A stretch of 57,433 bases of DNA from Rhizobiaceae bacterium (GTDB lineage Bacteria; Pseudomonadota; Alphaproteobacteria; Rhizobiales; Rhizobiaceae): contig JAHBYY010000021.1 in assembly GCA_019635715.1 (NCBI GenBank), positions 1-57,433 on the forward strand. Direction: 5' to 3'. Positions 28,370-55,586 of this stretch are shown here, one piece after another (within the stretch, counting starts at the first letter, position 1; each line of letters starts with the position of its first letter). Under the pieces are notes generated by a model. That model was not told the origin of the DNA. It saw nothing but the letters and a program-made list of their open reading frames with translations, and made no database searches. The position numbers and the translations under genes were made by a program.

Positions 28370-28370
28370 C

Positions 28371-29880: not shown

Positions 29881-29885
29881 CAGCC

Positions 29886-32890: not shown

Positions 32891-32892
32891 GC

Positions 32893-33462
32893 ATGGCGCC
32901 GGGCATTCGCACCTTCCCATTCGACCATGGCGGCGCAGCGAACGGCACCGTGCTGCCAACCGGCAGCGTGGCGCTTGCCGACCTCACGGCACAGCCACGA
33001 TTCGGCCTGAAGGGGCCGGGCAGCAGCGCCTGGCTCGAAGCGCACGGCGTGGCGCTGCCGCCGGTCAACCGTGTGGCCGTTCACCAGGGCATGCGGGTCC
33101 TGCGGCTCGGCGGCGAGGACATGCTGCTGACGGCAGAGAATGCCGCGCCGGCGCTTGCGGATCTGCAAGGAGCCTGGACTGCGGAAACGTCCGCGAAGGG
33201 CTATTCGTCATGGCGCGAGGAAGGCTGGGCGTGGATGCGCCTGTCCGGCCCGGCGCTGCAGCCGGCGCTCGCCCGCCTCTGCGCGCTCGACCTGCGCCCG
33301 ACGCGCTTCGCCACCGACGAGATCGCCCAGACACGCTTTGCCGGGGTCGAGGCTGTGCTGCTTCGCACCGGCCACGCCTTCGACGTGTTCTTCGACGTCA
33401 CAGCGTCGGCTTTCGTCGCTCGTGCGGTGGCGGCCGTCGAGAAACACTGCGCCAATTCGTAG
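32893..33462 (+). CDS. soxG: sarcosine oxidase-like gamma subunit
   Basis: This 189-residue protein matches SoxG in size and place (fourth in soxBDAG), and has a weak GcvT-like pattern: RFGLKGPGSSAWLEAHG at the start, GWAWMRLSGP, ARLCALDLRPTRFAT and a C-terminal LLRTGHAFDVFFDV. It lies two bases after the soxA stop. SoxG has no cofactor of its own and stabilises the tetramer. It is divergent in sequence, and the assignment relies partly on context. Confidence 0.82.
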   Translation: MAPGIRTFPFDHGGAANGTVLPTGSVALADLTAQPRFGLKGPGSSAWLEAHGVALPPVNRVAVHQGMRVLRLGGEDMLLTAENAAPALADLQGAWTAETSAKGYSSWREEGWAWMRLSGPALQPALARLCALDLRPTRFATDEIAQTRFAGVEAVLLRTGHAFDVFFDVTASAFVARAVAAVEKHCANS

Positions 33463-33478
33463 GAAGTGGAGACTGGAA

Positions 33479-34390: not shown

Positions 34391-34397
34391 CGATTCC

Positions 34398-35369
34398 ATG
34401 TCGCGCGCGCCGACCGTCATTGTGAGTTGGGAAGCGCCCGCGCCGCTGGTCGCCGCGCTGGCGCAGCTTCATCCCGACCTGACGATTCATGGCTGCGACA
34501 GCTACACCGCCCTGCCCGGCCTCATCGCAGAGACGCGAGCCGACGTGATCTTCACCATCAGGTTCGGCGGCGGCGTGCCCTTTCCGCGCGCCGCGATCGT
34601 CGAGAGCCCGATCGTCAAATGGGTGTCGGTCGGCGGCTCGGGCACCGATCATCTGCGGCCCTGGATGCCGGACCATGTGACCGTCACCAATGCTGCGGGG
34701 GTCGCGGCGGACGTGATGGCCGAATACGCCATCGGCGCCATGCTGTCCTTCTCGCTGGACCTTCGGGGCTTTCGGCGCAAGCAGCAGGCGCGGCAGTGGG
34801 ATCTGGCCGGCAACGTCGAGCCGATCGAGGGCCGCACCCTGCTGATCGTCGGCCTCGGCAAGACGGGCGAGGCGGTGGCCCGGCGCGCCAAGGCCATGGG
34901 GCTGACGGTGCTCGGGGTCCGGGCCCGGCCAAGAGCCACGCCGAATGTCGACAACGTCTACGGCATGGAGGACCTGCCCCGGCTGTGGGGCCGCGCCGAC
35001 TTCATCGTCTGCGCCGTTCCACTGCTGCCGACGACGCGCGGCCTGATCGACCATGCCGCGTTCGCCGCCATGAAGCCGTCGGCCGTGCTGATCGACGTGT
35101 CGCGCGGCGGCGTGGTCGAGCAGTCGGCCCTTCTCTCGGCACTCGACGAGCGCCGGCTGAAGGGTGCGGCGCTGGACGTCTTCACGACCGAACCGCTGCC
35201 TGAAGACGATCCGCTGTGGGGCTACGACAACGTCATCATCACTCCGCACTGCTCCTCCGTCTATGACGGCTGGGACGTCAAGGCGGTGCGCATGTTCGCC
35301 GAGAACCTGTCGCGCTATCGCGCCGGAAAACAGCTCGCCAACATCGTCGATCCGCAGCGCGGCTATTGA
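34398..35369 (+). CDS. D-isomer-specific 2-hydroxyacid dehydrogenase
   Basis: The 323-residue protein has the NAD-binding motif LLIVGLGKTGEAVARRAKAM and the catalytic set of the family: Arg in DVSRGGVVEQSAL, Glu in TTEPLPEDDPLW and His in IITPHCSS. It reduces or oxidises a D-2-hydroxyacid/2-oxoacid pair, such as glyoxylate/glycolate or hydroxypyruvate/D-glycerate. In this operon it may process the oxo acid formed by the DapA-family lyase. It starts 7 bases after that gene. Substrate preference cannot be read from the sequence. Confidence 0.9.
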   Translation: MSRAPTVIVSWEAPAPLVAALAQLHPDLTIHGCDSYTALPGLIAETRADVIFTIRFGGGVPFPRAAIVESPIVKWVSVGGSGTDHLRPWMPDHVTVTNAAGVAADVMAEYAIGAMLSFSLDLRGFRRKQQARQWDLAGNVEPIEGRTLLIVGLGKTGEAVARRAKAMGLTVLGVRARPRATPNVDNVYGMEDLPRLWGRADFIVCAVPLLPTTRGLIDHAAFAAMKPSAVLIDVSRGGVVEQSALLSALDERRLKGAALDVFTTEPLPEDDPLWGYDNVIITPHCSSVYDGWDVKAVRMFAENLSRYRAGKQLANIVDPQRGY

Positions 35370-35391
35370 GACCGACAAGGAGACCTTTGCC

Positions 35392-36930
35392 ATGAGTCAG
35401 GACAGGCGCGGCGGCGGACGCAAGTCGAAGGTGGCGCGCGGCGGCGGCGGCATCGCCCAACTGCCGTGGGAGCATGTGCGCAATCCCTACCCGCCCATGC
35501 AGATGCTCGACGAGGAACGGATGGAGACGCTGCACCGCACCTCGATGCGCATCCTCTCCGAGCTCGGCATGCGGGTGATGAGCGACCGCGTCCTCGATCT
35601 GTTCGAAAGCGCCGGCGCCATCGTCGACCGGCAGGAGAAGACGATCCGCATCGACGAGAGCCTCGTCGCCGAAGCGCTCAGGACGGTGCCTTCGAGCTTC
35701 AACCTCAACAGCCGCAATCCGGCCAAGCAACTGCATTTCGGCGACAATTCGCTGGTCTTCGGCCTCGTCGCCGGTCCGCCCAACGTCCATGACAGGATCA
35801 ACGGCCGCCGCGCCGGCAATTTGCCCGACTACCAGAACTTCGTCCGGCTGGCCCACCACTTCAACGCCATCCACATGCTCGGCAACCAGGTCGTCGCGCC
35901 GATCGAGCTGCCGGCAGAGTCCCGCCACCTCGACACCTACAACGCCAACATCTCGCTCAGCGACCTCTGCTTCCACTGCAGCGCCATCGGCCGCGACCGC
36001 GCCATGGACGCGATCAACATGGCGGCGATCGCCCGCGGCATCAGCGTCGACGAGATGCGGGCGGCACCCGGCGTCACCACCATCATCTCGGTCAACTCGC
36101 CGCGCCTGTTCGACGACGCGATGGCGGAGGGGCTGATGGCGATGGCCGAGTTCGGCCAGCCGGTGACCGTGACGCCCTTCACGCTGATGGGCGCCATGAC
36201 GCCGGTGACGCTGGCGGCGGCGCTCTGCCAGCAGAACGCCGAGGCGCTGTTCGGCGTCGTGCTGACGCAACTGGTCAATCCGGGGACGCCGGTGATGTAC
36301 GGCGCCTTCACCTCGAATGTCGACATGAAGTCGGGGGCGCCGGCCTTCGGCACGCCGGAGAACGCCAAGGCGAACATCATCGCCGGCCAGTTGGCGCGCC
36401 GCTACAGCCTGCCCTACCGAACATCGAACGCCAACGCTTCCAACGTCGTCGACCTGCAGGCCGCCTACGAGACGGAGATGGCGACCTGGGGCGCCGTGCT
36501 CGGCGGCGCCAATCTGATCTATCACGCCGCCGGCTGGCTCGAAGGCGGGCTGACCGCGTCCTACGAAAAGCTGGTGCTCGACGTGGAGATCCTGCAGAAC
36601 ATGATGGAGTTCCTGCGGCCCCTGCCTTTCCAGGAAGACGATCTCGGCTTCGAGGCGATCAAGTCGGTGCCGGCCGGCGGCCATTTCTTCGGCTCCGAGC
36701 ACACAATGTCGCGCTACACGACCGCCTTCTACCAGCCGATGCTGTCGAACTGGCAGAATTACGGCGCCTGGCAGGAAGCCGGCGGCAAGGACGCGCTGGA
36801 GCGCTGCACCGAGCTCTGGCAGCAGGCGCTGCGCGACTACGAGGAGCCAGCAATGGACCCGGCGATCCGCGAGGAACTCGACGCCTACATGGCGCGGCGG
36901 CGCAAGGAACTCATCGGCTCGGGCATCTAG
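35392..36930 (+). CDS. MttB-family corrinoid methyltransferase (non-pyrrolysine)
   Basis: This 512-residue protein is a trimethylamine-methyltransferase (MttB, COG5598) superfamily member: LSELGMRVMSDRVLDLFESAG, then VFGLVAGPPNVHDRINGRR, and NASNVVDLQAAYETEMATWG with GGANLIYHAAGWLEGGL. No in-frame stop codon interrupts it, so it is the non-pyrrolysine kind. Characterised non-Pyl members demethylate glycine betaine, proline betaine, carnitine or related quaternary amines, passing the methyl group to a corrinoid protein (family knowledge). No corrinoid protein gene is in the window. A Gly/Arg/Lys-rich 20-residue N-terminal tail is unusual. Glycine betaine would fit with the dimethylglycine and sarcosine genes. 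Confidence 0.88.
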   Translation: MSQDRRGGGRKSKVARGGGGIAQLPWEHVRNPYPPMQMLDEERMETLHRTSMRILSELGMRVMSDRVLDLFESAGAIVDRQEKTIRIDESLVAEALRTVPSSFNLNSRNPAKQLHFGDNSLVFGLVAGPPNVHDRINGRRAGNLPDYQNFVRLAHHFNAIHMLGNQVVAPIELPAESRHLDTYNANISLSDLCFHCSAIGRDRAMDAINMAAIARGISVDEMRAAPGVTTIISVNSPRLFDDAMAEGLMAMAEFGQPVTVTPFTLMGAMTPVTLAAALCQQNAEALFGVVLTQLVNPGTPVMYGAFTSNVDMKSGAPAFGTPENAKANIIAGQLARRYSLPYRTSNANASNVVDLQAAYETEMATWGAVLGGANLIYHAAGWLEGGLTASYEKLVLDVEILQNMMEFLRPLPFQEDDLGFEAIKSVPAGGHFFGSEHTMSRYTTAFYQPMLSNWQNYGAWQEAGGKDALERCTELWQQALRDYEEPAMDPAIREELDAYMARRRKELIGSGI

Positions 36931-36936
36931 ACCGAC

Positions 36937-38421
36937 ATGCGGCACGATCTCGTCATTCGCAACGGCACGCTGATCTCGGGCGACGGGTCGGCTCGGTTCC
37001 GCGCCGACATCGCGGTCGACGGCGACGCCATCGCGGCCATCGGCGATCTCGCCGGACCGCGGGGGCGGCAGGAGATCGACGCCAGCGGGCGCATCGTCGC
37101 GCCCGGCTTCATCGACGTGCACACCCATGACGACGGGGCGCTACTCTCGCCGCAGGGCATGGATCCCAAGATCAGCCAGGGCGTCACCACGGTGATCGCC
37201 GGGCTGTGCGGCGTCAGCCTGGCGCCGCTGCTGCTCGGCACGACGCCGCCTCCGCCGTTCACGCTGGTCGGGCCGAAGGAGAATTTCCGCTTCGACCGCT
37301 TCGCCGACTACGTCGCAGAACTCGAACGGCTCGGCATCGCCACCAACGCGGCCCTGCTCGTCGGACACACGACGCTGCGCCAGCGGCTGATGTCGGCGAC
37401 CGACCGTCCCGCCGATCCGGCGGAGACCGAGGCGATGTGCGCGGCCGTGGCGCAGGCGATGGCGGAGGGCGCCTTCGGCCTCAGCACCGGGCTCGACTAT
37501 CCGCCGGCCGTCAACTCGTCCACGGAGGAAGTCAAGGCGCTCGCCGCGGTCGCCGCCCGGCTCGGCGGACCCTATGTCACGCATACGCGCAACTATTTCG
37601 AGCGGCTGGAAGAAGCCATCGAGGAAGCGATCGACATCGCCCGCGATGCCGACGCCAAGCTGATCATCTCGCATCACCAGGTCACGGGCAGGCCGAATTT
37701 CGGCAAGAGCGTGCCGACCATGAAGCGCATCGACGCGGCGCGCGCCGAGATCGACATCGGCATGGACGTCTATCCCTATGCCGCGAGTTCGACCGTGCTG
37801 CGGCTGGAGCGCTGCGACACCGGCGTGAAGATCCTCGTCACCTGGTCCGACCCGCACCCCGAAATGGCGCGCCGCGAGATCGCCGACATCGCGCGGGAGT
37901 GGAAGTGCAGCGAACGCGAGGCCGGACAGCGCCTGCTGCCGGCAGGTGCCGTCTACTTCCAGCTCGACGAGACCGACGTGCGCACCATCATGGCGCATCC
38001 GCGCACCTTGATCGGCTCGGACGGCCTGCCGCACGATGTGCACCCGCATCCACGCCTGTGGGGCACCTTTCCGCGCGTGCTCGGCCATTATGTCCGGGAT
38101 GTCGGCCTGTTCAGCCTGGAGGAGGCGGTGTTCCGCATGACTGGGCTGGCGGCGCGCGAATACGGCATGGAGCGGCGTGGCGAACTGCGGGTCGGTCACT
38201 TTGCCGACCTCGTCGTCTTCGATCCCGATACGGTCAACGACCGCGCCACCTTCGAGGAGCCCAGGCAGGCTTCCGCCGGCATCGACCACGTCATCGTCAA
38301 TGGCGTGCCGGTCTGGCAGGCGGGGCGGGCCACCGGCGCGCGGCCGGGCGGCGTGCTCAAGCCGACCCGCGGCTCCGCCGGCGTCCGGCTCACCGGCTGC
38401 GGCTGCGCCGTTTGCGGCTGA
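36937..38421 (+). CDS. N-acyl-D-amino-acid deacylase (D-aminoacylase family)
   Basis: The 494-residue amidohydrolase has the family features: GFIDVHTHDD (His62, His64), GVTTVIAGLCGVSLAPL with Cys91 (the metal-binding Cys of D-aminoacylases), GLSTGLDYPP, THTRNYFERLEEAI, LIISHHQVTG, and the C-terminal motif IGSDGLP followed by WGTFPRVLG. These zinc enzymes hydrolyse N-acyl-D-amino acids to D-amino acids, and some act on other N-acyl or cyclic amides. The C-terminal CGCAVCG cysteine pair is unusual. It is last in the plus-strand operon, facing the minus-strand hydantoinase operon, so both converge on D-amino acids. Confidence 0.88.
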   Translation: MRHDLVIRNGTLISGDGSARFRADIAVDGDAIAAIGDLAGPRGRQEIDASGRIVAPGFIDVHTHDDGALLSPQGMDPKISQGVTTVIAGLCGVSLAPLLLGTTPPPPFTLVGPKENFRFDRFADYVAELERLGIATNAALLVGHTTLRQRLMSATDRPADPAETEAMCAAVAQAMAEGAFGLSTGLDYPPAVNSSTEEVKALAAVAARLGGPYVTHTRNYFERLEEAIEEAIDIARDADAKLIISHHQVTGRPNFGKSVPTMKRIDAARAEIDIGMDVYPYAASSTVLRLERCDTGVKILVTWSDPHPEMARREIADIAREWKCSEREAGQRLLPAGAVYFQLDETDVRTIMAHPRTLIGSDGLPHDVHPHPRLWGTFPRVLGHYVRDVGLFSLEEAVFRMTGLAAREYGMERRGELRVGHFADLVVFDPDTVNDRATFEEPRQASAGIDHVIVNGVPVWQAGRATGARPGGVLKPTRGSAGVRLTGCGCAVCG

Positions 38422-38618: not shown

Positions 38619-39284
38619 TTACAGCGCCTCGTAGAGGCGGTCGATCGTGTCCGCCTCATAGACGAACTCAACCGGCCGCGTGCAACGCCAGGCCTGGTAG
38701 GCCTCGCCGCGCAGCGCCTTGACCGCCTCGCCGGTCGTCACGACGCCACCTCCGTAGAGGCGGTTGGCCATGTCCAGCGTCGCCGTGCGGTGCATCGCCT
38801 TCGACATGCTGCCCATCGCGTCCTTGACCAGCCATACCCGGAAGCCGGCGTAGACGGCATCGAACACCGTGGCGCGCACGCAGCTATCGGTCAGGATGCC
38901 GGTGACGATCAGGTTCTCGATGCCGAGCTCGGTCAGATCCTTCTGCAGGTTCGTATCGCGGAACGCCGTCGGCCATGTCTTGCGCACGACGATCTCGCCC
39001 GGCACCGGGGCGACCTCCTCGCAAATGTCAGACTCCGCGGTTCCGGCCACGGCGTAGCGGAATTCGTCGCCAACGTCGGCGTCCAGGCGGGCATAGTTCG
39101 ACCGCTTGTCCGGCTCGACCCAGGCCTGCACGTGGAATGCCTGAACGCCCGCCGCTCGTGCCGCGTCGAGGACCGCCCGCGTGTTGGCGAGCACGTCGTC
39201 ATAGTCCACGATCGGCCATGCCGCTCCGGGCCTGTACTCATTCTGCAGGTCGATCGGCAGGATCGCGGTCCTGGCGAGGTCCAT
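38619..39284 (-). CDS. isochorismatase-family cysteine amidohydrolase
   Basis: The 221-residue protein has the catalytic triad of the family: Asp12 (AILPIDLQNEY), Lys102 (VVRKTWPTAF) and Cys135 (GILTDSCVRATVFDA). Members that carry this triad include N-carbamoylsarcosine amidohydrolase, ureidoacrylate hydrolase (RutB) and nicotinamidase. Within a hydantoinase operon and close to sarcosine genes, N-carbamoyl hydrolysis is the most attractive role, but only by context. The start is ATG 39284, inside the end of the upstream M20 hydrolase gene (47-bp overlap). Last gene of the minus-strand operon. Confidence 0.87.
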   Translation of the reverse strand: MDLARTAILPIDLQNEYRPGAAWPIVDYDDVLANTRAVLDAARAAGVQAFHVQAWVEPDKRSNYARLDADVGDEFRYAVAGTAESDICEEVAPVPGEIVVRKTWPTAFRDTNLQKDLTELGIENLIVTGILTDSCVRATVFDAVYAGFRVWLVKDAMGSMSKAMHRTATLDMANRLYGGGVVTTGEAVKALRGEAYQAWRCTRPVEFVYEADTIDRLYEAL

Positions 39285-40578
39285 GGTTGTTGCCCTTTCC
39301 ATCGAAGCTGACGACGAACCGCAGGAGAACCCGGATCGCCTGATCGAGATCGGCGATCTCCATGCTCTCCTGCGGATTGTGGCTGCCGTTGCGGTTGCGC
39401 ACGAACAGCATGGCGCTCGGCACGCCTGCGCCGGCGAAGGCCGCGGCATCATGGCCGGCGCCGCTCGGCACGCGCGGAGCCGATATGCCCGTTTCCGCCG
39501 CCGCCGCTTCAAGCCGGGCAGCGAGATCGGGCGCCATGGCCGCGCACTCCCAGGCGAAGAGCGGCCCGAGTTCGAACCGGACGCCACGGCGGGCGGCAAT
39601 CTCGCCGATCATCTCCCGCAGCCGCGCCTCGATGCGGTCGAGCACCGCCTGCTCGGCGCTGCGGACGTCCAGCGTGAAACCGAGTTCGCCGAGGATGCGG
39701 CTGCCGCCGTGCTGCGTCGGATCGGACTCGACCCGGCCGAAGGTGATCGTCGCCTCGCGGCCGTCGCGCTCCAGCGCGTCCCATTCTTTCTCCAGTCCGG
39801 CGACCAGGTCGGCGAAGCCGAGCACCGCGTCGCGGCGCGCAAAGCGCGGCTCCGCGCCGGAGTGGCCGTAGGCGCCGAGACAGCGCGCCTTGACGTGGCG
39901 AAAGCCGCCGGCAATGCCGGTGACCACGCCGACCGGCGCACCGAGCGCGATCAGTCGCGGGCCCTGCTCGATGTGGACTTCGAGGAACGCCGCGATGCGC
40001 CCCGCGGCGATGCCCGCGACGCCACGCGCCACGGCCTCGGGGTGGAAACCCTCCTCGCGCATGTGGTCGGCCAGCGTGCGCCCGCTGTCGGAGCGGCGCG
40101 CGTCGAGCGCCTCCGGCGGCAGGCGGCCGAGCGCGGCCTCGCTGCCCGGATAGGAGAGCGGGAACCATGCCGCTTCCTCCGCACGCGTCGCCATCACGAC
40201 GAGATCGCGCTTCAGCGGGACACCCTGGCGGACGAGTTCCGCCATCACGGCCAGGCCGGCGGCGACGCCGGCCGCGCCGTCGAAATTGCCGCCATGCGGC
40301 ACACTGTCGAGATGCGAACCGACGACGATCGCCGGAAGCGTGGGGTCGGTTCCTGCCAATGTCAGGTAGAGGTTGCCGGCCGCGTCGGTACGCGCCGTCG
40401 CGCCCAGCGCTTCGGCCTCCTGCCGCACGAGTTCATGGGCGAAGCGCTCGCCCGGTCCATAGGCCGCTCGCGTGACGCCCGGCGGGTCGGCGGTTTGGCG
40501 CGCCAGCACCTCGAGCAGGCGCGCGGCGAGCCGCGTTCCGTCGATCAGGATCGGCCGGCTGTCGGACGGCTCAGACAT
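39238..40578 (-). CDS. M20 Zn-dependent hydantoinase/carbamoylase-family amidase
   Basis: The 446-residue protein is of the AllC/L-carbamoylase group (COG0624/TIGR01879). Metal ligands are visible in order: VVGSHLDSVPHGGNFDGAAGV (split here as GSHLDS and GGNFDGAAG; His and Asp), RAEEAAWF (Glu pair), EVHIEQGPRL (His) and the late GSHNPQESM (His). Known substrates are N-carbamoyl-L-amino acids, allantoate, ureidoglycolate and beta-ureidopropionate. Together with the D-carbamoylase it could handle the other enantiomer. It overlaps the FAD oxidoreductase gene by 8 bp and the next by 47 bp. Confidence 0.9.
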   Translation of the reverse strand: MSEPSDSRPILIDGTRLAARLLEVLARQTADPPGVTRAAYGPGERFAHELVRQEAEALGATARTDAAGNLYLTLAGTDPTLPAIVVGSHLDSVPHGGNFDGAAGVAAGLAVMAELVRQGVPLKRDLVVMATRAEEAAWFPLSYPGSEAALGRLPPEALDARRSDSGRTLADHMREEGFHPEAVARGVAGIAAGRIAAFLEVHIEQGPRLIALGAPVGVVTGIAGGFRHVKARCLGAYGHSGAEPRFARRDAVLGFADLVAGLEKEWDALERDGREATITFGRVESDPTQHGGSRILGELGFTLDVRSAEQAVLDRIEARLREMIGEIAARRGVRFELGPLFAWECAAMAPDLAARLEAAAAETGISAPRVPSGAGHDAAAFAGAGVPSAMLFVRNRNGSHNPQESMEIADLDQAIRVLLRFVVSFDGKGNNHGPRQDRDPADRPAE

Positions 40579-41719
40579 GCGGCGCCTGCGAGGCCGGCCG
40601 CAGCCGCGCCGGCCCGAGGTCGGCTTCCGTCACGCCGCGATCGAGGATGTCGCCGGGAATGCCCTCGCCCCGCACGAAGGCGGCGCAGATGCGCGACATC
40701 GCCGACGCGGTCTTGATGCCGTAGCCGCCCTGCCCGACCAGCCAGATGAAACCCGGTGCCGAACCGTCCGGCCCGACCACGGGCGAGCCGTCCGGGGCAA
40801 AGGTGCGCAGGCCGGCCCATGAGCGGGAGACGCGCTGCACTTCGATGGTCGTCGCCTGCCCGAGCCGGTCCGCGCCGATGGCGACGTCCATGTCGTCCGG
40901 CCAGGCATCCATCGGCTCGGAAGGCGTCGCATCGGCCGGTGAGACCAGCAACTGGCCGGCGTCCGGCTTGAAGTAGAACTCCGCCCCGACATCGTCGATC
41001 AGCGGCCAGCCGGAGATCGACATGCCGTCAGGTGCCGGAATGTTGAAGGCGGTGCGCCGCTTCGGCTGCAGGCCGATCGGCGCCACGCCGGCCATCGCCG
41101 CCACCACGTCGCCCCACGCGCCGGCGGCGTTGACAATGCGTGGCGCGGTGAAAATCCCGGCCGTCGTCTCGACCGTCCAGAGATCGCCGGCGCGGCGGAT
41201 TTCGCGAACCTCGGCGTTGGTGCGGATCGTCGCCCCCCGCGCCCGCGCGCCGCGCAGAAAGCCCTGATGCAGCCCGTCGACGTCGAGGTCCATGGAGTTC
41301 GGCTCGAAGAAACACGCCGCGAGATAGTCCGGCCGCAGCACCGGCACACGCGCGATCGCCTCGGCGGGGTCGAGCGGCACGATCGACGGCACCAGGCTTC
41401 TCGCCGTGTCGAGTGCCTTGGCCAGGCGCTCGCGCTGGTCGGCGCGGGCGATGGTGATCATGCCGCGCCGGCCCAGCAGCGGATGGTCGCAGAACCCTTT
41501 GGGCGGCTCGGCGAGGAAGCCGCGGCTCGCCAGAGCCAGCCGGCGGATCGTCGCCGTGCCGTAGTTCTCGGTAAAGCTCGCCGCCGAGCGGCCGGTGCTG
41601 TGGTAGCCGCACTGGGCTTCGCGCTCCAGCACGACGACCCGATGGCTGGCCGAGATCTCATAGGCGGCGCCGGCGCCGGCAATGCCGCCGCCGACCAGGA
41701 TGACGTCCGTCTCGACCAT
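40571..41719 (-). CDS. FAD-dependent D-amino-acid dehydrogenase-like oxidoreductase
   Basis: The 382-residue DAO-fold protein starts with the FAD motif ILVGGGIAGAGAAYEI and has YHSTGRSAASFTENYG, a motif close to that of D-arginine dehydrogenase (DauA-type), then GAWGDVVAAMAG, and the C-terminal GFIWLVGQGGYGIKTASAMSR that closes the FAD site. Such enzymes oxidise D-amino acids, or N-methyl/secondary amino acids, to imino acids. In this operon, it would take the D-amino acid released by the D-carbamoylase and pass an imine to RidA. It is in the middle of the operon, with 8-bp overlap to the M20 gene. Confidence 0.87.
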   Translation of the reverse strand: MVETDVILVGGGIAGAGAAYEISASHRVVVLEREAQCGYHSTGRSAASFTENYGTATIRRLALASRGFLAEPPKGFCDHPLLGRRGMITIARADQRERLAKALDTARSLVPSIVPLDPAEAIARVPVLRPDYLAACFFEPNSMDLDVDGLHQGFLRGARARGATIRTNAEVREIRRAGDLWTVETTAGIFTAPRIVNAAGAWGDVVAAMAGVAPIGLQPKRRTAFNIPAPDGMSISGWPLIDDVGAEFYFKPDAGQLLVSPADATPSEPMDAWPDDMDVAIGADRLGQATTIEVQRVSRSWAGLRTFAPDGSPVVGPDGSAPGFIWLVGQGGYGIKTASAMSRICAAFVRGEGIPGDILDRGVTEADLGPARLRPASQAPHV

Positions 41720-41746
41720 CGTCAGGCGCTCCCCGCGGACATCCCG

Positions 41747-42661
41747 TCACGCCATTCCGGCGATGCGGCGATACTGGTCGGGGCGCCGGTAGAGATCGAA
41801 GTCGAAATTCACCTTGCGGCAGACGCCGATCAGGTCGAGGTCGGCGCGGTGCACGATCACCTCGTCGTCGAGCGACATCGCCTGGGCGGCGATCTCGCCG
41901 GTCGGCGCGATGATGCAGGAGCCGCCGATCAGCGCCTGACCGTCCTCCAGCCCCGCCTTGGCCGCCGCGGCGACCCACAGCGTGTTCTGGTAGGCGCCGG
42001 CCTGCATCGGCAGATGGTTGTGGAACATCCTGAGATGCGCCAGCGCCGGCGCCTCGTCGAGCCGCAGCGGCGTGTTGTAGCCGATCAGGGCCACCTCCGC
42101 CCCGTTCAGGCAGAGCATGCGGTAGGTTTCCGGCCAGCGGCGATCGTTGCAGATCGCCATGCCGACCTTGACTCCGCGATAGTCGAACACCGGGAAGCCG
42201 AGATTGCCCGGCTCGAAGTAGCGGCGTTCCAGATGTGTCGTCACGCCTTCCTGCACGTCGCTGGCGCCCGGCACGTGCATCTTGCGGTAGCGGCCGATGA
42301 AGGCTCCATCGGGACCGACCAGATCCATCGTGTTGAAGCCGTGGCGGACGCCGTCTTCGTACACCAGTTCCGAATAGCCCAGCGCGAAGCCGATCTTCAA
42401 TTTGGCCGCGGCATCATAAAGTGATTGAGTATGCGGCCCCGGCATCGCCGTTTCGAAGAAGGCGTCGATCTCGGCCTGGTCGTCCATGCGCCAGCGCGGG
42501 AAGAAGGTGGTCAGCGCCATCTCCGGGAACACCGCCAGCTCCGCGCCCGCCGCCGCCGCGCGCTCCAGGAGATGGACGAGCCGCCCGACCGTCTCGGCCC
42601 GCGGCGCGGCGCGCTGGATGGGTCCGGTCTGGCAGACCGCGATGCTCAGGCATCGAGCCAT
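41747..42661 (-). CDS. N-carbamoyl-D-amino-acid hydrolase (nitrilase superfamily)
   Basis: The 304-residue protein is a carbon-nitrogen hydrolase with the catalytic triad at the positions known for D-carbamoylases: Glu47 (FPEMALTTFFPRW), Lys127 (IGRYRKMHVPG) and Cys171 (GMAICNDRRWPETYR). These segments are nearly diagnostic for N-carbamoyl-D-amino-acid amidohydrolase, which releases the D-amino acid, CO2 and ammonia. It overlaps the D-hydantoinase gene by 16 bp, so their products are made together and act in sequence. It is cytoplasmic; no signal peptide. Confidence 0.93.
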   Translation of the reverse strand: MARCLSIAVCQTGPIQRAAPRAETVGRLVHLLERAAAAGAELAVFPEMALTTFFPRWRMDDQAEIDAFFETAMPGPHTQSLYDAAAKLKIGFALGYSELVYEDGVRHGFNTMDLVGPDGAFIGRYRKMHVPGASDVQEGVTTHLERRYFEPGNLGFPVFDYRGVKVGMAICNDRRWPETYRMLCLNGAEVALIGYNTPLRLDEAPALAHLRMFHNHLPMQAGAYQNTLWVAAAAKAGLEDGQALIGGSCIIAPTGEIAAQAMSLDDEVIVHRADLDLIGVCRKVNFDFDLYRRPDQYRRIAGMA

Positions 42662-44073
42662 GGGGTCGTGTCCTCGATTCGTTTGCCGACGCGCGTCGGA
42701 TCGGCGCTGCGCGGCAGGAACTGCCCGAAGCCTGGCGCTGCGCGCAATTCGCCGTCTTCGATGACGGGTTCGCCGCGCACCAGCACGGTCACAGGCTTGC
42801 CGGTCACCTCGCGCCCCTCATAGGGCGTGAAATCGCAGCGCGAATGCAGCACCCGATGGCCGAGCGTCCATTTGAGGGACGGATCCCATACCGCCAGGTC
42901 GGCGTCCAGCCCGACGGAGATACGCCCCTTGCGATCGGCGAAGCCGTAAGTCCTGGCCGCATTGCGCGAGGTCAGGTCGAGATAGCGGTCGAGGCTGAGG
43001 CGGCCGGTCAGCAGGCCCTCGCAGAACAGCAGCGGCAGCCGCGTCTCCAACCCGGGAATGCCGCTCAGCGTCGTGTGGAAACCCGGCACCTCCGCCTTGC
43101 CGACCTTGTCGGCGAACCAGTAGGGCGAATGGTCGGACGACCAGAGGTCGATCCCGCCTTCCGCCAGTTCCTTCCACAGATGCGCATGGCTCTTCGGCGA
43201 GCGCGCCGGCGGCGAGAAGACGAAGCGCGCCGCGTCCGGTCCGGGCCGGGTCAGGTCGGAGGCGCCGACGAAGACGTATTGCGGACAGGTCTCGGCGACC
43301 ACGTCGACGCCGCGCGCCCGCGCCCGCTCGATCTCCTGCGCAGACTGCCACGACGACACGTGGACGATGGTCATCCGCGCGCCGGTCATCTCGGCGAGCG
43401 TCAGTGCGCGGTGCGTCGCCTCGCGCTCCATGATCTCGCTGTGCACCACATTGTGGTAGCGGATGTCGGTGCGGCCGAGGTCCAGCAGCCGCTTGCGGGT
43501 CCGCCGGATCATCGCGTCGTTCTCGGCATGGACCATGACGATCCAGCCGAGCCGCCGCGCCGCTTCCAGCGTCGTCAGGAACAGGTCGTCGTCGACCGCG
43601 AAACCCTCATAGGTCATGAACAGCTTTACCGACGCGATGCCGAGCGGCGCCAACGCCTCGAGTTGCGCGGCCACGTCGGCGCCGGTGCCCATCGTGACCA
43701 CCGCATGCAGGCCGAAATCGATCACCGCCCGGCCGGCGGCGCGATCCAGCGCCCGGTCGAGCGCGCCCACCGTGGTCAGACCGGGACCGGGCATGCCGAA
43801 GGGGACGATGCAGGTGGTGCCGCCGAAAGCCGCCGAGATCGTGCCGGACGCGAAATCGTCGGCGTTTCCGGCTCCGCCCCAGACCGGCTGGTCGAGATGG
43901 CAATGCGCGTCGATGCCGCCCGGCATCACCCATCTGCCATCGGCCCGGATCGTCCTGCGCCCGACGAGTCCCGTCCCGATCGCGGCGATGCGACCGGCTT
44001 CGACGGCGACGTCACAGTCCGCCCAGCCGGCGTCGAGCGCCACGCGTCCGCCTGAGACGACCAGATCGTGCAT
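42646..44073 (-). CDS. D-hydantoinase / dihydropyrimidinase
   Basis: The 475-residue cyclic amidohydrolase retains the complete binuclear metal site: His57 and His59 (GGIDAHCHLDQP), the carboxylated lysine Lys150 (ASVKLFMTYEG), His182 (VMVHAEND), His238 (TIVHVSS) and Asp314 (WSSDHSPYWF). Tyr154 in FMTYEG is the substrate-binding tyrosine of hydantoinases. It opens 5-substituted hydantoins (or dihydropyrimidines) to N-carbamoyl amino acids. The next gene, a D-carbamoylase overlapping by 16 bp, points to D-selective hydantoin turnover. No hydantoin racemase gene is found in the window. Confidence 0.93.
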   Translation of the reverse strand: MHDLVVSGGRVALDAGWADCDVAVEAGRIAAIGTGLVGRRTIRADGRWVMPGGIDAHCHLDQPVWGGAGNADDFASGTISAAFGGTTCIVPFGMPGPGLTTVGALDRALDRAAGRAVIDFGLHAVVTMGTGADVAAQLEALAPLGIASVKLFMTYEGFAVDDDLFLTTLEAARRLGWIVMVHAENDAMIRRTRKRLLDLGRTDIRYHNVVHSEIMEREATHRALTLAEMTGARMTIVHVSSWQSAQEIERARARGVDVVAETCPQYVFVGASDLTRPGPDAARFVFSPPARSPKSHAHLWKELAEGGIDLWSSDHSPYWFADKVGKAEVPGFHTTLSGIPGLETRLPLLFCEGLLTGRLSLDRYLDLTSRNAARTYGFADRKGRISVGLDADLAVWDPSLKWTLGHRVLHSRCDFTPYEGREVTGKPVTVLVRGEPVIEDGELRAAPGFGQFLPRSADPTRVGKRIEDTTPWLDA

Positions 44074-44094
44074 GGCGCGCTCCGGGCCGGTCGA

Positions 44095-44445
44095 TCAGCC
44101 GACCGCCGCCGTCACCATGATCTCGACGCGGTACTGGTCGCCGGCGAGCCGTGCCTCGACGGTGGCCCGCACCGGCATGGCGCCGCGGTCGATCCAGGCG
44201 TCCCATGCCGCGTTCATCATATCGAAATCGGCGATGTCGCGCAGCCAGATCTGGGCGCTGAGCAGTTTTGTCTTGTCGCTGCCCGCCTTGGCCAGCATGG
44301 CGTCGATCTTGTCGAGGATCTGCCTGGTCTGGTCGGTCGTGTCGCCGGAGAGATCGTCGGCGGTCAGTCCGGCCACGTAGACCGTGCCGTTGTGGCGCAG
44401 CACGCGGCAGAACCGCTGACCGTTCTCAAGACGTTCGATGCTCAT
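44095..44445 (-). CDS. RidA-family imine/enamine deaminase
   Basis: The 116-residue protein is of the RidA/YjgF/Rut C-like family: YVAGLTADDLSGDTTDQTRQ and the C-terminal PVRATVEARL with the family's substrate-binding Arg93. RidA hydrolyses reactive imines and enamines to oxo acids and ammonia. As first gene of the operon, 21 bases before the hydantoinase and upstream of a D-amino-acid oxidoreductase, a role in removing the imine product is natural. The start ATG 44445 has an AGGAG site. Confidence 0.9.
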   Translation of the reverse strand: MSIERLENGQRFCRVLRHNGTVYVAGLTADDLSGDTTDQTRQILDKIDAMLAKAGSDKTKLLSAQIWLRDIADFDMMNAAWDAWIDRGAMPVRATVEARLAGDQYRVEIMVTAAVG

Positions 44446-44770
44446 CTGCGGGCTCCTGTCGTGTGGAATGATCGGCGGGAGGCATGATCCGCGCCCTCCC
44501 GACCGTAGGAAGGGTGACGCTCGCCTGTAAAGACGAGACCGGCCGGCAACCGGCGTTTTCGACAGCGGCACAGGCCAAATAAAATCGTGGCATAGCCTCG
44601 CCAATCTTCGTTTGCAGGCGAAAGGGCCCGGTGTAGCGTCGGCAACCAGCAGCCGTGCGTCCGCGGCGGCGCCAATGGGAAAGCGATCGACAGATGAGCG
44701 CGCCGCCTCGGGAACCGAACGCGGATCGTCGCCCGGACGACAGGTGCATTGCCGATCGTCGCGCCGACAC
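44446..44770. promoter_or_regulatory. divergent promoter region, hydantoinase operon / MFS operon
   Basis: This gap of about 325 bp separates the two divergent operons. A less GC-rich part around 44570-44600 (GGCCAAATAAAATCGTGGC) is a likely promoter core. A partly symmetric CCGGCCGGCAACCGGCG (44550-44566) is seen. No regulator gene is adjacent; control may come from one of the LysR proteins or from elsewhere. Confidence 0.4.
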
Positions 44771-46048
44771 GTGCCGGCCCGTGCCTTGAGCCCGTTCGCC
44801 GCGGCCCTGCAACGCGTCTGGTACAACGCGGCGCGTTCGCGCGCCATCCTGCCGGTGCTCGCCGCCATCTGCCTCGGCTGCACGGGCAGCGCCATGCTGA
44901 TGACCGCCGTGTCGCTGCATCTCGGCCAACCCGGCACCGACCCGGATGTCGTACAGATCGTGCTCACCGCCTATCCGGTCGGCTTCCTCATCGGCTGTCT
45001 CGCCACCCGGCCGGTGGTCGCCCGACTGGGACACGAGAACACGTTCGGCCTGATCCTGGCGCTGGCGCTGGCCTCGACGCTCGGCTTCACCGTCTCCAGC
45101 CATCTGCCGCTCTGGTTCGGCTTCCGGCTGTTCGGCGGCATGGCGATGGCCGGCATGTTCGTTGTCTGCGAAAGCTGGATCAACCTCTATGCCGAGGAGC
45201 GCAGCCGCGGCGCGATGTTCGGCCTCTACATGCTGTCGACGGCGGTCGCCGTCCTGCTCGGCCAGGTGCTCGTCGGCCTCGTCGGCGCGCAGTCCCCGCA
45301 TCTCTTCACGGTCGCGGCGATCTTCGTCGCGCTCGCTTTCATGCCCCGCCTGTCCGGCCGGCGATGGCCAGCCCTGCCCGCACCGCAGCCCGACCGAGAC
45401 CTGCCCTCGGCGCCGGAGCAGCGGCTCGGCGTGCTGCAGTTGTTCCGCATCGCGCCGGTGACGGTGGTGAGCATCTTCCAGGGCGGCATCACCAATATGA
45501 ACGTCTTCGTACTCACCCCCATCTACGGCACGCAGATCGGCCTGTCGGCCGCCACGACGGTCGCTCTCGTGACGACGCTGTCGATCGCCGGCATGCTGGC
45601 GCAGACGCCGGTCGGCTGGCTCTCCGACCGCTACGACCGTCGCATCATCCTGCTCGTGCAGGGCCTTGTTTCCGTTGCGCTGTGCATCTCCATCGGGCTG
45701 CTCGGCAGCCGATCCGAGACGCTGCTGTTCATGCTGTTCTTCGCCTATGGCGCGACGGCGCTGACCATCTACCCGGTGGCGATCGCCTTCGCCAATGCGC
45801 GCCTGCCGGCCCGCCACATGGTCGCCGCCTCCGGCACGCTGCTGCTGCTCTACTCGATCGGCAACGTCGCGACGCCGGGGCTGGCGGCCGGGCTGATGGC
45901 GCACACAATCCCGCAGGCGATGTTCCTCATCCTCGGCGCCGGCGCCGTGCTGGTCGCCGCGACCGCCTGCTACAATCTGCTGCGCAAGGAGACCTTCGCG
46001 CTTCCGCCGCTGGCCGTGCAGCCGGTTGCCGAGGAGGCCAGGCCATGA
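44771..46048 (+). CDS. MFS transporter
   Basis: The protein (425 residues from GTG 44771) has about 12 hydrophobic segments in two halves with a central hydrophilic loop (about 190-215). MFS loop signatures are LATRPVVARLGHENTFGL between helices 2 and 3 and GWLSDRYDRRIILL in the second half. It resembles the YcaD/UPF0226 type, which lacks a well-known substrate. The start is uncertain: GTG at 44744 and ATG at 44675 are in frame and none has a strong ribosome binding site. Divergent placement from the hydantoinase operon suggests uptake or export of its substrate. It overlaps the following SDR gene by ATGA. Confidence 0.85.
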   Translation: MPARALSPFAAALQRVWYNAARSRAILPVLAAICLGCTGSAMLMTAVSLHLGQPGTDPDVVQIVLTAYPVGFLIGCLATRPVVARLGHENTFGLILALALASTLGFTVSSHLPLWFGFRLFGGMAMAGMFVVCESWINLYAEERSRGAMFGLYMLSTAVAVLLGQVLVGLVGAQSPHLFTVAAIFVALAFMPRLSGRRWPALPAPQPDRDLPSAPEQRLGVLQLFRIAPVTVVSIFQGGITNMNVFVLTPIYGTQIGLSAATTVALVTTLSIAGMLAQTPVGWLSDRYDRRIILLVQGLVSVALCISIGLLGSRSETLLFMLFFAYGATALTIYPVAIAFANARLPARHMVAASGTLLLLYSIGNVATPGLAAGLMAHTIPQAMFLILGAGAVLVAATACYNLLRKETFALPPLAVQPVAEEARP

Positions 46049-46815
46049 CTGCCACGCCAACCGCCTCCTCGCCTCGCCTGTCGGGCAAGGTCGTGCTGGT
46101 CGCCGGGGCGGCGAGCGGCATCGGCGCGGCAATCGCCCGGCGCTGTGCCGTCGAAGCAGCGCGCGTCGTCTGCGCCGATCTCGACGAGCCGGCAGCACGG
46201 ACCTTGGCAGCCGGGATCGGAAATGACGCAGCCGGCTGGCATTGCGACGTGACCTCGACCACCTCGGCGCAGGATCTCGTCCGGAATATCCGCGACCGCT
46301 TCGGCCGGCTCGACGGCTTCGTCTACAACGTCGCCGCGCCGTCCCACGACGGCACGGTGGTCGAATTCGACGAGGCGCGCTTCCGCTACGAACTCGATTG
46401 CGGGCTGACCGGCGCCTTCATCGTCAGCAAACATGCAATCCCGCTGATGGCGGCGAGCGGCGGCTCGATCGTCTTCATCGCCTCGCAGTTCGCGCATGTC
46501 GCGGTCGGCCGCTCGCCGGTCTACTGCGCCATGAAGGCAGGCCTGGTGCATCTCGCCAAGGCGATGGCCATCGACCATGCGCCCGACAACATCCGGGTCA
46601 ACAGCCTGTCGCCCGGCGCGATCGCCACGAACCGCCTGCTCGCCCGTCATGCCGATCTCGACGCCGCGAATGCGGCGCTCGGCCCCGCGCATCTCACCGG
46701 CCGCATCGGCCAGCCGGCCGAGGTCGCGGCCGCCGCCGCGTTCCTGCTCTCGGACGACGCGTCCTTCGTCACCGGCACCGACCTGCTCGTGGATGGCGGC
46801 TATGCGACGCGGTAG
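46045..46815 (+). CDS. short-chain dehydrogenase/reductase (SDR)
   Basis: The 256-residue SDR has the NAD(P) motif VLVAGAASGIGAAIARR, CADLDEP (Asp suggesting NAD preference), the NNAG-equivalent YNVAAPSH (altered from the consensus), and the catalytic Ser in IASQFAH with YCAMK (Tyr-x-x-x-Lys). The C-terminal DLLVDGGYATR is typical. It is coupled to the transporter gene by a 4-bp overlap. The substrate is not known. Confidence 0.9.
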   Translation: MTATPTASSPRLSGKVVLVAGAASGIGAAIARRCAVEAARVVCADLDEPAARTLAAGIGNDAAGWHCDVTSTTSAQDLVRNIRDRFGRLDGFVYNVAAPSHDGTVVEFDEARFRYELDCGLTGAFIVSKHAIPLMAASGGSIVFIASQFAHVAVGRSPVYCAMKAGLVHLAKAMAIDHAPDNIRVNSLSPGAIATNRLLARHADLDAANAALGPAHLTGRIGQPAEVAAAAAFLLSDDASFVTGTDLLVDGGYATR

Positions 46816-46848
46816 TTCCCACCTGCTCCCCGGCACGGAGTTCCTGCC

Positions 46849-47865
46849 ATGACCCTGCTCGTCACCGGCGGCACCGGCTTCGTCATGAGCGTCGTCGCCC
46901 GCGCCTGGCTCGACCGCGACGCCCAGGCCCGCGCGGTGATCCTCGACGCCTCCGGCCTCGACGCCATGGCGGAGACGTTCTTCGCTCCGGTGCGCGACCG
47001 GCTGACCGTCGTCACCGCCGACGTCACCGAGCCGTCCGGCTGGGCCGAGCGGCTGGATCGGTTCGGCATCTCGGCCATCGTGCACGGCGCGACGGTGACG
47101 CCGAACTCGCGGCCCGACGACCCGACGCGCCCGCCGGAATCCTTCGATCCGGCGAAAATCATCGACGTCAATCTCAGCGGCACGCTGCGCATGCTGGAAT
47201 GGGCGCGCGGCCGGCAGACCCTTCGGCGCTTCGTCTATGTCAGCTCAGGCTCGGTCTACCGCCACCACGGGCCGGACTGGCGCGGCGAACCGCTGCCCGA
47301 GGACGGCTATGTCGCGCCGCTCACCCTCTACGGCATCTCGAAATTCGCCGCCGAGATGATCACCAACCGCTATGCCGACCTGTTCGGAATGCCGGCGGTC
47401 TCGGTGCGGCTTTCGTCCGTCTATGGCCCGATGGACCGCGTCACCGGCAGCCGCAACGTCCGCCACGCCACCAACCGCATCGCGCACATGGCGCTGGCCG
47501 GCGAGACCATACGCCCCAACAGCCTGGAGCCGGTCGGAGACTACGTCAGCTCGACCGACGTGGCGCGCGCCATCCTGGCGCTGATCGATGCGGACCGCCT
47601 GCGCTACCGCCACTACAATATCGGCAGCGGCACGACAGCGACGATCGGCGACATCATCGGCTGGGCGCGTCAGCGGGTTCCCGGCCTGAAGGTCGAGGTA
47701 AGCCCGTCCGAGACCGCCAACGTCCGACTCGATCCGGCGCTCAGGACAGGCATGTGGGGCGAATACGACCTCGCCCGCATCGAGCGCGACACCGACTGGC
47801 GCCCGACGCCACCTGCCCGAGCGTTCCACGACTACATGGACTGGATCGCCGCAAACGAGACCTGA
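46849..47865 (+). CDS. NAD-dependent epimerase/dehydratase family protein
   Basis: The 338-residue extended SDR starts with LLVTGGTGFVMSVVAR, where the third glycine of the usual TGGTGFIG motif is replaced by Met. The catalytic set is present: VSSGSVY and YGISKFA (Tyr-x-x-x-Lys), followed by RLSSVYGPMD. In the COG0451 family members act on nucleotide sugars, but also on other hydroxy or keto acids (for example D-erythronate dehydrogenases). In this operon of small-molecule enzymes, a nucleotide-sugar role is not favoured. It starts 33 bases after the SDR gene. Confidence 0.86.
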   Translation: MTLLVTGGTGFVMSVVARAWLDRDAQARAVILDASGLDAMAETFFAPVRDRLTVVTADVTEPSGWAERLDRFGISAIVHGATVTPNSRPDDPTRPPESFDPAKIIDVNLSGTLRMLEWARGRQTLRRFVYVSSGSVYRHHGPDWRGEPLPEDGYVAPLTLYGISKFAAEMITNRYADLFGMPAVSVRLSSVYGPMDRVTGSRNVRHATNRIAHMALAGETIRPNSLEPVGDYVSSTDVARAILALIDADRLRYRHYNIGSGTTATIGDIIGWARQRVPGLKVEVSPSETANVRLDPALRTGMWGEYDLARIERDTDWRPTPPARAFHDYMDWIAANET

Positions 47866-47882
47866 ACCGGAGAGAACGCGCC

Positions 47883-48809: not shown

Positions 48810-48833
48810 GGCTTCGCGACACCGGGGGCGCCG

Positions 48834-53709: not shown

Positions 53710-53800
53710 GCGGGTGCGGCTTCGGGCCCATCACCTGGCTTTCTCAAGATGCGTTGTCCGACGGGGCAAGGTGAAGGACCTGAACGCACCTCTGAATTCG

Positions 53801-55579: not shown

Positions 55580-55586
55580 TCCCGCA

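What the first reader, a model, noticed from the sequence alone, without database searches (positions are those of the whole stretch)
38619..44445. Six-gene operon coding for an apparently complete hydantoin to oxo-acid route
On the minus strand RidA, D-hydantoinase, D-carbamoylase, a D-amino-acid-dehydrogenase-like flavoprotein, an M20 carbamoylase/amidase and an isochorismatase-type amidohydrolase are separated by at most 27 bases or overlap (16, 8 and 47 bp). Catalytic residues of each are intact by eye. In order, the products would open a hydantoin, cut the N-carbamoyl-D-amino acid, oxidise the D-amino acid and hydrolyse the imine. Two further N-carbamoyl-type hydrolases could take the L-form or N-carbamoylsarcosine. 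I know of hydantoinase-carbamoylase clusters, but not of one that includes the downstream oxidase and RidA in one operon; this last statement is from memory.
Basis: partly seen in the sequence, partly recalled or inferred. Interest (0 to 1): 0.72.

Follow-up and report, generated by a model that had tools for sequence, protein, structure and literature searches.

The report
D-hydantoin breakdown operon with oxidative tail
Six neighbouring bacterial genes, kept together in many Mesorhizobium relatives, appear to open a hydantoin ring, release a right-handed (D-) amino acid and turn it into an ordinary keto acid, which suggests a testable natural job for D-hydantoinases.

Summary
In detail: six intact, tightly packed minus-strand genes (38619-44445) encode a Rid2-like imine deaminase, D-hydantoinase, D-carbamoylase, DauA-like D-amino acid dehydrogenase, M20 hydrolase and isochorismatase-fold hydrolase. 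Synteny supports the oxidative tail. Of 52 loci with a D-carbamoylase of at least 60% identity, 47 carry both dehydrogenase and Rid, 40 also a hydantoinase, 32 all six; of 41 more distant loci none has dehydrogenase or Rid. Most of the 52 are close relatives. In 249 genomes of the order, close homologues of the four core enzymes occur in the same three genomes only.

Corrections: the 'RidA' is Rid2-like, the class that speeds the DauA reaction in vitro. The flavoprotein lost a guanidinium-binding glutamate (48 of 49), so D-arginine is unlikely. The roles proposed for the M20 and isochorismatase-like proteins are not supported. Rid2 plus D-amino acid dehydrogenase in one operon is known (DadA/DadY); the union with hydantoinase and carbamoylase was in no paper I could find. 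Seven loci show no hydantoinase, so N-carbamoyl-D-amino acids may be the true entry point. The natural substrate is unknown.

The parts
44095..44445 (-). Rid2-like imine/enamine deaminase (116 aa), first gene of the operon
   Evidence: PF01042 83 bits; best PDB match PSPTO_0102 E 4.6e-30, a Rid2 protein in PMC5619798; Arg93, taken by eye as the equivalent of RidA Arg105, kept in 49 of 49 rows
42646..44073 (-). D-hydantoinase / dihydropyrimidinase (475 aa)
   Evidence: TIGR02033 426 bits over cut-off 393; PDB 1k1d D-hydantoinase E 6e-96; H57, H59, K150, H182, H238, D314 (metal-site roles recalled) kept in 43 of 43 rows
41747..42661 (-). [quoted passage not shown]
   Evidence: PDB 1fo6 E 3e-101 over residues 1-301; E47, K127, C171 (triad role recalled) kept in 54 of 54 rows
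40571..41719 (-). DauA-like FAD D-amino acid dehydrogenase (382 aa)
   Evidence: PDB 6p9d/3nyc DauA E 2e-108, ungapped 1-375; next family 3e-14; R222, Y249, R305 kept in 49 of 49 rows, Glu87 -> Met in 48 of 49
39238..40578 (-). M20-family metal-dependent hydrolase (446 aa), substrate uncertain
   Evidence: NF009527 472 bits over cut-off 461, TIGR01879 270 over 204, both subfamily models; PDB 3n5f E 3e-53
38619..39284 (-). isochorismatase-fold cysteine hydrolase (221 aa), substrate uncertain
   Evidence: PF00857 127 bits; Cys143 and Lys110 in 37 of 37 rows, Asp20 in 36 (one gap), numbered in the 229-aa reading used in the scripts; no equivalog cut-off reached
36937..38421 (+). D-aminoacylase-like protein (N-acyl-D-amino acid deacylase), convergent neighbour, probable functional partner
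   Evidence: PDB 1m7j D-aminoacylase E 2e-146; present in the held stretch of 29 of 52 near loci, in L118 and in the Neorhizobium plasmid locus L157

Best explanation
A catabolic operon for D-configured N-carbamoyl amino acids and their cyclic forms. The D-hydantoinase opens a 5-substituted hydantoin to the N-carbamoyl-D-amino acid; the D-carbamoylase removes CO2 and ammonia to give the D-amino acid; the DauA-like flavoprotein dehydrogenates it (electron acceptor unknown, probably not O2) to an alpha-imino acid; the Rid2-like protein hydrolyses the imine to the 2-oxo acid and ammonia. The most constant core is carbamoylase + dehydrogenase + Rid; the hydantoinase is a frequent but dispensable front end. 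The M20 and isochorismatase-like enzymes are accessory hydrolases of unassigned substrate. The neighbouring D-aminoacylase probably feeds the same D-amino acid pool. Shown here: gene identity, intact catalytic residues, conserved linkage. Inferred: every reaction, its order and the substrate class (likely non-basic D-amino acids).
For: Long matches to D-carbamoylase, D-hydantoinase and DauA. Dehydrogenase and Rid in 47 of 52 near loci against 0 of 41 distant ones. In 249 genomes of the order the four core enzymes at high similarity occur in the same 3 genomes and only there. All 23 rows with dehydrogenase and Rid in a 68-row carbamoylase tree fall in one starred set of 27. In all 15 near loci that have both genes but not the Mesorhizobium-type block, the two matches lie 12-239 bases apart on one strand. 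Rid2 proteins deaminate the imine released by DauA in vitro (PMC5619798). Arg222, Arg305 and Tyr249 kept, guanidinium-binding Glu87 replaced. D-aminoacylase neighbour.
Against: No activity data. 7 of 52 near loci show no hydantoinase, and L085, L086 and L088 show no close dehydrogenase or Rid within the held stretch (L085 has a 27% identical FAD protein). The Neorhizobium plasmid locus L157 has Rid, hydantoinase, carbamoylase, M20 and isochorismatase but no DauA homologue. The Asn of 1k1d (ring contact, recalled) is Ser in 38 of 43 hydantoinases. Glu246, the second guanidinium contact, is still Glu in 13 of 49 flavoproteins. The genome has 12 Rid-family matches, so this one need not be essential; in P. 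aeruginosa a dadY mutant grew like wild type and lost only in competition. No hydantoin racemase match on the window contig. The importer found in other clusters is not next to the operon; the window's only match is a 37% identical binding protein. 32 of the 52 loci are one block type from close relatives, so they are not independent events.
Confidence: 0.68

Rival explanations
1. A general salvage hub for N-blocked D-amino acids: D-carbamoylase and D-aminoacylase unblock N-carbamoyl- and N-acyl-D-amino acids, the DauA-like enzyme and Rid finish; the hydantoinase and hydantoins are incidental or rarely used. (It overlaps with the best explanation, so the confidences do not add to one.)
For: 7 of 52 near loci have carbamoylase, dehydrogenase and Rid without a hydantoinase match; a D-aminoacylase homologue lies in the held stretch of 29 of 52; 3 loci (L075, L078, L080) have only a 43-44% identical hydantoinase on the other strand; oligopeptide-type ABC transporters in several clusters.
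Against: 41 of 52 near loci have a hydantoinase; in 38 of these 41 it lies directly upstream of the carbamoylase on the same strand, as I read, and in the window the genes overlap by 16 bp.
Confidence: 0.4
2. A dihydropyrimidine (reductive uracil/thymine) or beta-ureido acid pathway: the hydantoinase is a dihydropyrimidinase and a carbamoylase acts on N-carbamoyl-beta-alanine.
For: TIGR02033 and NF009941 are both named dihydropyrimidinase; the deposit behind L157 calls its M20 protein N-carbamoyl-beta-alanine amidohydrolase.
Against: The CN-hydrolase is far closer to D-carbamoylase (E 3e-101) than to the entries named beta-ureidopropionase (3ivz E 5e-22, 8pt4 E 5e-12); an alpha-amino acid dehydrogenase has no role in that pathway; no dihydropyrimidine dehydrogenase domain appeared among the 22 window proteins scanned against Pfam, though the rest of the genome was not searched for it.
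Confidence: 0.08
3. A creatinine / N-methylhydantoin route: the isochorismatase-like enzyme is an N-carbamoylsarcosine amidase and the sarcosine-oxidase-like genes of the same contig (28329-33462) take the product.
For: A sarcosine oxidase alpha subunit (29663-32890) beside a DAO-domain protein, and a dimethylglycine-dehydrogenase-like protein, lie on the same contig; N-carbamoylsarcosine amidase 1nba matches at E 7e-17.
Against: The two better PDB matches are putative isochorismatases and no equivalog cut-off is met; D-carbamoylase and DauA-like dehydrogenase would be superfluous; the isochorismatase-like gene has no match in 17 of 52 near loci.
Confidence: 0.05
4. The M20 enzyme belongs functionally to the divergent PuuE-like/AllB-like/epimerase gene group rather than to the D-pathway, and sits in this operon by rearrangement.
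For: In L078, L086 and L088 an M20 relative (45-46% identical) precedes epimerase and PuuE-like genes, and in L083 one (61%) follows a PuuE-like gene; the divergent group is present in the 32 block loci.
Against: M20 lies between the carbamoylase and isochorismatase-like genes, with no PuuE match in the held stretch, in L084, L118 and L157.
Confidence: 0.3

Closest known systems
hyu hydantoin-utilisation clusters (e.g. Aminobacter sp. DSM24754, Bradyrhizobium, Arthrobacter crystallopoietes; PMC3546935)
   Same: D-hydantoinase and D-carbamoylase genes side by side
   Different: The clusters in the passages I read hold hydantoinase and carbamoylase, in some a racemase or (DSM24755) ABC-transporter genes; 'oxidoreductase' and 'amino acid oxidase' do not occur in that text. 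Here the D-amino acid is processed further and no racemase match is on the contig
Pseudomonas aeruginosa DauA (D-arginine dehydrogenase) with Rid2 proteins in vitro (PMC5619798)
   Same: DauA-family flavoprotein whose released imine is deaminated by Rid2 proteins
   Different: Here the two genes are linked in one cluster with hydantoinase and carbamoylase, and Glu87 for the guanidinium group is Met in 48 of 49 rows
Pseudomonas dadRAYX alanine catabolic operon (DadA + DadY, PMC9714295)
   Same: FAD D-amino acid dehydrogenase and Rid2 protein in one operon; the imine is released and deaminated in vitro
   Different: The window's flavoprotein is closest to DauA, not DadA; an alanine racemase rather than hydantoinase/carbamoylase supplies the D-amino acid
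[quoted passage not shown]
   Same: Homologue over nearly the full length; triad residues kept
   Different: Neighbouring genes differ in the more distant loci examined; the place of 1fo6 itself in the tree was not tested

Membership tests
D-hydantoin utilisation (hyu-type) cluster | D-hydantoinase gene next to D-carbamoylase gene | tested here: met
   16 bp overlap in the window; 41 of 52 near loci have both in the held stretch
D-hydantoin utilisation (hyu-type) cluster | hydantoin racemase and/or dedicated hydantoin permease nearby (common, not constant; recalled) | tested here: inconclusive
   PF01177 matches on contigs C1 and C141, none on the window contig; permease family not searched
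D-hydantoinase (TIGR02033) | score over curated cut-off | tested here: met
   426.4 over 393.25; the better-scoring NF009941 stays under its cut-off (505 under 647)
D-hydantoinase (TIGR02033) | hydrolysis of 5-substituted hydantoins with D preference | not testable with these tools
   needs assay
[quoted passage not shown]
   E 3e-101; 54 of 54 rows keep E47, K127, C171
DauA D-arginine dehydrogenase | family homology and carboxylate-binding residues | tested here: met
   E 2e-108 ungapped; R222, Y249, R305 in 49 of 49 rows
DauA D-arginine dehydrogenase | guanidinium-binding Glu87 (and Glu246) | tested here: not met
   position 87 Met in 48, Thr in 1; position 246 Ala in 34, Glu in 13, Asp in 2 of 49 rows; roles from PMC11193025 passages
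RidA subfamily (TIGR00004) | score over cut-off | tested here: not met
   46.6 against 106.25
Rid2 subfamily | catalytic Arg of deaminase-active Rid proteins | tested here: met
   Arg in 49 of 49 rows; equivalence to Arg105 judged by eye
Rid2 subfamily | placement among Rid2 and not Rid1 or Rid3 proteins | tested here: inconclusive
   best PDB match PSPTO_0102 E 4.6e-30, PA5083 fifth at E 1.6e-19 behind three uncharacterised proteins, E. coli YjgF E 3.6e-6; no subfamily tree made
N-carbamoyl-L-amino acid hydrolase (M20) | substrate-site Asn of the aligned L-carbamoylase 3n5f | tested here: not met
   Arg in 37 and Lys in 2 of 39 rows; metal-site residues kept in 38 or 39 of 39, one row gapped; role of that Asn recalled
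N-carbamoylsarcosine amidase | specific match rather than general isochorismatase fold | tested here: inconclusive
   1nba E 7e-17, behind two putative isochorismatases; no equivalog passed
Operon | co-transcription | not testable with these tools
   spacing -47 to +27 bp; no transcript data

The most novel reading that the evidence does not exclude
A dedicated D-selective ureido-acid salvage pathway, in some lineages with its own oligopeptide-type ABC importer, is the physiological reason why a whole clade of D-hydantoinases and D-carbamoylases exists; it also gives Rid2 proteins a genetically fixed DauA-type partner, with a specialised Rid lineage found so far only in these clusters.
Probability: 0.5. 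Interest if true: 0.65.

Novelty: new variant of a known kind. Interest (0 to 1): 0.48.

Why it matters
The natural function of hydantoinases was called unclear in a paper whose passages I read (PMC3546935), although the enzymes are used in industry. A conserved cluster that continues to the 2-oxo acid says that, in this clade, the D-amino acid is an intermediate to be burned, not an end product, and makes the question testable by single-gene deletions. It also turns the in-vitro coupling of Rid2 proteins with DauA into a genetically linked pair.

Tried and rejected
Rejected: beta-ureido/pyrimidine pathway and creatinine pathway as main readings (see rivals). Rejected: that any Rid relative marks the pathway; in 13 genomes with Rid relatives at 55-61% identity (12, 1) no DAO or carbamoylase hit over 55 bits lay in the fetched 7.5-13 kb. 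Rejected: that DauA relatives in general sit with hydantoin genes; the one plasmid neighbourhood I opened of 96 records (Azospirillum) has none, and all 96 are under 60% identical. Rejected: that the binding protein at 24025-25794 is the cluster's transporter; it is 37% identical and only the genome's third match. Led nowhere for novelty: of the eight paper searches bearing on the combination, three found no paper and the listings of the rest showed none that reports such a cluster. I judged by titles, abstract beginnings and term counts, and of the papers listed there opened passages of five (PMC3546935, PMC9714295, PMC5619798, PMC11193025, PMC10655190). The library holds only open-licence PMC papers, so older subscription papers on Agrobacterium hydantoin clusters, which I recall but could not check, may mention an oxidase-like ORF. 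Not done: structure prediction, RNA searches, viral or metagenome collections, Rid subfamily tree, promoter or regulator analysis.

L084 counts as lacking the dehydrogenase but its contig ends at the Rid gene; L077 counts as lacking both. One of 50 sequences with a qualifying Rid match (window, 48 near loci, L118) was not extracted, so Rid residues rest on 49 rows. Of 88 more distant carbamoylase places that I count in the list I fetched the surroundings of 38 (18, 20); with L090-L092 these make the 41.


Full report
What is there. Six ORFs on the minus strand, all ATG-started and without internal stops, lie within 5.8 kb: Rid protein 44095-44445, hydantoinase 42646-44073, D-carbamoylase 41747-42661, flavoprotein 40571-41719, M20 hydrolase 39238-40578, isochorismatase-like hydrolase 38619-39284. 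Junctions are +21, -16, +27, -8 and -47 bp. The window is contig C66 of a 4.57 Mb, 151-contig genome assembly; the closest carbamoylases in named records come from Mesorhizobium.

What the proteins are. [quoted passage not shown]). The hydantoinase passes the D-hydantoinase model TIGR02033 (426 over 393 bits) and matches 1k1d (E 6e-96). The flavoprotein matches DauA, the D-arginine dehydrogenase, without a gap over residues 1-375 (E 2e-108), the next family being at 3e-14. The Rid protein's best solved relative is PSPTO_0102 (E 4.6e-30); three uncharacterised proteins follow, then PA5083 (E 1.6e-19), while E. coli YjgF is at 3.6e-6; it fails the RidA model. PSPTO_0102 and PA5083 are the Rid2 representatives of PMC5619798. 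The M20 protein passes only subfamily-level models (NF009527, TIGR01879). The isochorismatase-like protein passes no NCBIfam cut-off.

Residues. Numbering of the flavoprotein equals that of DauA because the alignment has no gap. Across 49 rows (window plus 48 loci) Arg222, Tyr249, Arg305 and Tyr53 never vary; position 87 is Met in 48 and Thr in 1; His48 is Ser in 49; position 246 is Ala in 34, Glu in 13, Asp in 2; position 336 is Lys in 49 where the aligned DauA has Gln. [quoted passage not shown] So a D-amino acid dehydrogenase for non-basic substrates is likely; this is inference. The carbamoylase triad is kept in 54 of 54 rows, hydantoinase metal-site residues in 43 of 43, the Rid arginine in 49 of 49 (residue roles recalled). 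Against a textbook reading: the hydantoinase has Ser in 38 of 43 (Asn in 4, Ala in 1) for the aligned Asn of 1k1d, and the M20 protein has Arg (37) or Lys (2) of 39 for the Asn aligned in the L-carbamoylase 3n5f.

Synteny. A scan of one genome per species (84,980) with the carbamoylase returned 78 loci. Of the 52 with identity of at least 60% (L039-L089 and L093; the lowest is 67%), 47 carry DauA-like dehydrogenase and Rid, 46 of them on the carbamoylase strand; 40 of the 47 also a hydantoinase; 32 all six genes. These 32 are one block type, from records named Mesorhizobium or Hyphomicrobiales/Rhizobiales bacterium, in which most flanking genes are conserved too: MttB-like and usually D-aminoacylase genes on one side; MFS, SDR, epimerase, PuuE-like and AllB-like genes on the other. 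They are close relatives and not independent events. The other 15 loci with both genes are more telling: dehydrogenase and Rid matches lie 12-239 bases apart on one strand in all 15, in Mesorhizobium (L068-L074, no hydantoinase match; L072 and L074 are held only as 11.0 and 10.3 kb), Aureimonas, Lichenifustis, three Ancylobacter and three proteobacterial MAGs. G087, of another family of the order, has the same pair and all six genes (L118). The five near loci without the pair are L077 (3.1 kb contig), L084 (contig starts at the Rid gene), L085, L086 and L088; the last three are exceptions within the held stretch. Of 41 more distant loci (45-60%) none has a DAO or Rid match of 60 bits or more, 5 have a hydantoinase and 17 an M20.

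Second check. Among 249 genomes of the order, the Rid at E <= 1e-38 occurs in 3 (G000, G105, G087). The same 3, and no others, have the flavoprotein at 68% or more (next best 51%), the hydantoinase at 65% or more (next 47%) and the carbamoylase at 75% or more (next 60%). The flavoprotein and hydantoinase searches scored at most 7 and 6 candidates a genome. Eight other genomes of the window's family in that draw have none of them at these levels. A 68-row carbamoylase tree puts all 23 rows with dehydrogenase and Rid into one starred set of 27 (support 100), needing 3 label changes against a shuffled mean of 19.4 (quick method, block loci reduced to 6). More distant Rid relatives (55-61%) in 13 genomes stand in unrelated contexts.

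Variants. In L075, L078, L080, L084, L118 and the Neorhizobium plasmid locus L157 an oligopeptide-type ABC importer lies between Rid and the hydantoinase or carbamoylase; L076, L081 and L082 have parts of it. In the block loci and the window it is not there. On the Neorhizobium plasmid the gene deposited as cytochrome c2 is this Rid protein (71% identical), no DauA homologue was found, a PLP enzyme of the cystathionine gamma-lyase/synthase family stands in its place, and a gene annotated dadA lies about 4.8 kb beyond the isochorismatase gene on the other strand. G087 has a PLP protein, 67-72% identical to that one, beside its dehydrogenase. Enzymes of that family can release imines or enamines (recalled), which would fit Rid as the constant partner. 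In 31 of 32 block loci an FrhB/FdhB-like protein (PF04432) lies between carbamoylase and dehydrogenase; L061 has a 556-aa GMC-looking oxidoreductase there (named by eye), and the window has neither there, nor an FrhB-like match in its assembly (85% complete, and that search had no positive control).

Mechanism. Hydantoin -> N-carbamoyl-D-amino acid -> D-amino acid -> imino acid -> 2-oxo acid. The last two steps rest on the published finding that DauA releases its imine and that Rid2 and Rid3, but not RidA or Rid1, proteins deaminate it (PMC5619798, abstract and passages), and on DadA/DadY (PMC9714295, passages), where loss of DadY showed only in competition. The genome has 12 Rid-family matches, so redundancy is possible. 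Because 7 loci show no hydantoinase, the most constant core is N-carbamoyl-D-amino acid -> oxo acid. The D-aminoacylase-like neighbour (1m7j, E 2e-146) suggests a common D-amino acid pool. The M20 and isochorismatase-like proteins remain unassigned: M20 relatives also sit beside PuuE-like genes in L078, L083, L086 and L088.

Novelty. Hydantoinase/carbamoylase clusters are known (PMC3546935, passages), and so is a D-amino acid dehydrogenase/Rid2 operon. The union was not found in eight searches of the open library; that is weak evidence of absence. I file it as a new variant of a known kind.

Noticed in passing
L157 4260-4607 (CP030828.1, Neorhizobium sp. NCHU2750 plasmid): Gene deposited as 'cytochrome c2' is a Rid-family protein, 71% identical to the window's Rid: an annotation error.
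   Followed up: yes
L039 10923-12242 and the same place in 30 other block loci; L061 8773-10443: An FrhB/FdhB-like protein (PF04432/PF04422; cysteine motif by eye) sits between carbamoylase and dehydrogenase in 31 of 32 block loci; L061 has a 556-aa GMC-looking oxidoreductase instead; absent from that place in the window. A possible electron acceptor slot.
   Followed up: partly
window 44612-50165, + strand: Divergent MFS - SDR - NAD-epimerase - PuuE-like - AllB-like group, conserved beside the operon in the 32 block loci; M20 + epimerase + PuuE-like recur together in L078, L086, L088. Looks like a second, uncharacterised cyclic-amide pathway.
   Followed up: partly
window 21201-36930: Dimethylglycine-dehydrogenase-like protein, MmgE/PrpD protein, sarcosine oxidase alpha subunit, DHDPS-family protein, and by eye a 2-hydroxyacid dehydrogenase and an MttB-like protein: a methylated-amine catabolic neighbourhood.
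   Followed up: partly
L068-L071 and L073, downstream of the carbamoylase: An acetamidase/formamidase-family gene and oligopeptide-type ABC transporter genes lie on the opposite strand to the hydantoinase-free dehydrogenase-Rid-carbamoylase set in 5 loci.
   Followed up: no
L071 near 12062: A second carbamoylase-like stretch (91% identical match) about 1.2 kb after the first: a possible duplication remnant.
   Followed up: no
window 50623-57433: Three long plus-strand ORFs (1028, 540 and at least 578 aa) that look like repetitive secreted proteins by eye.
   Followed up: no
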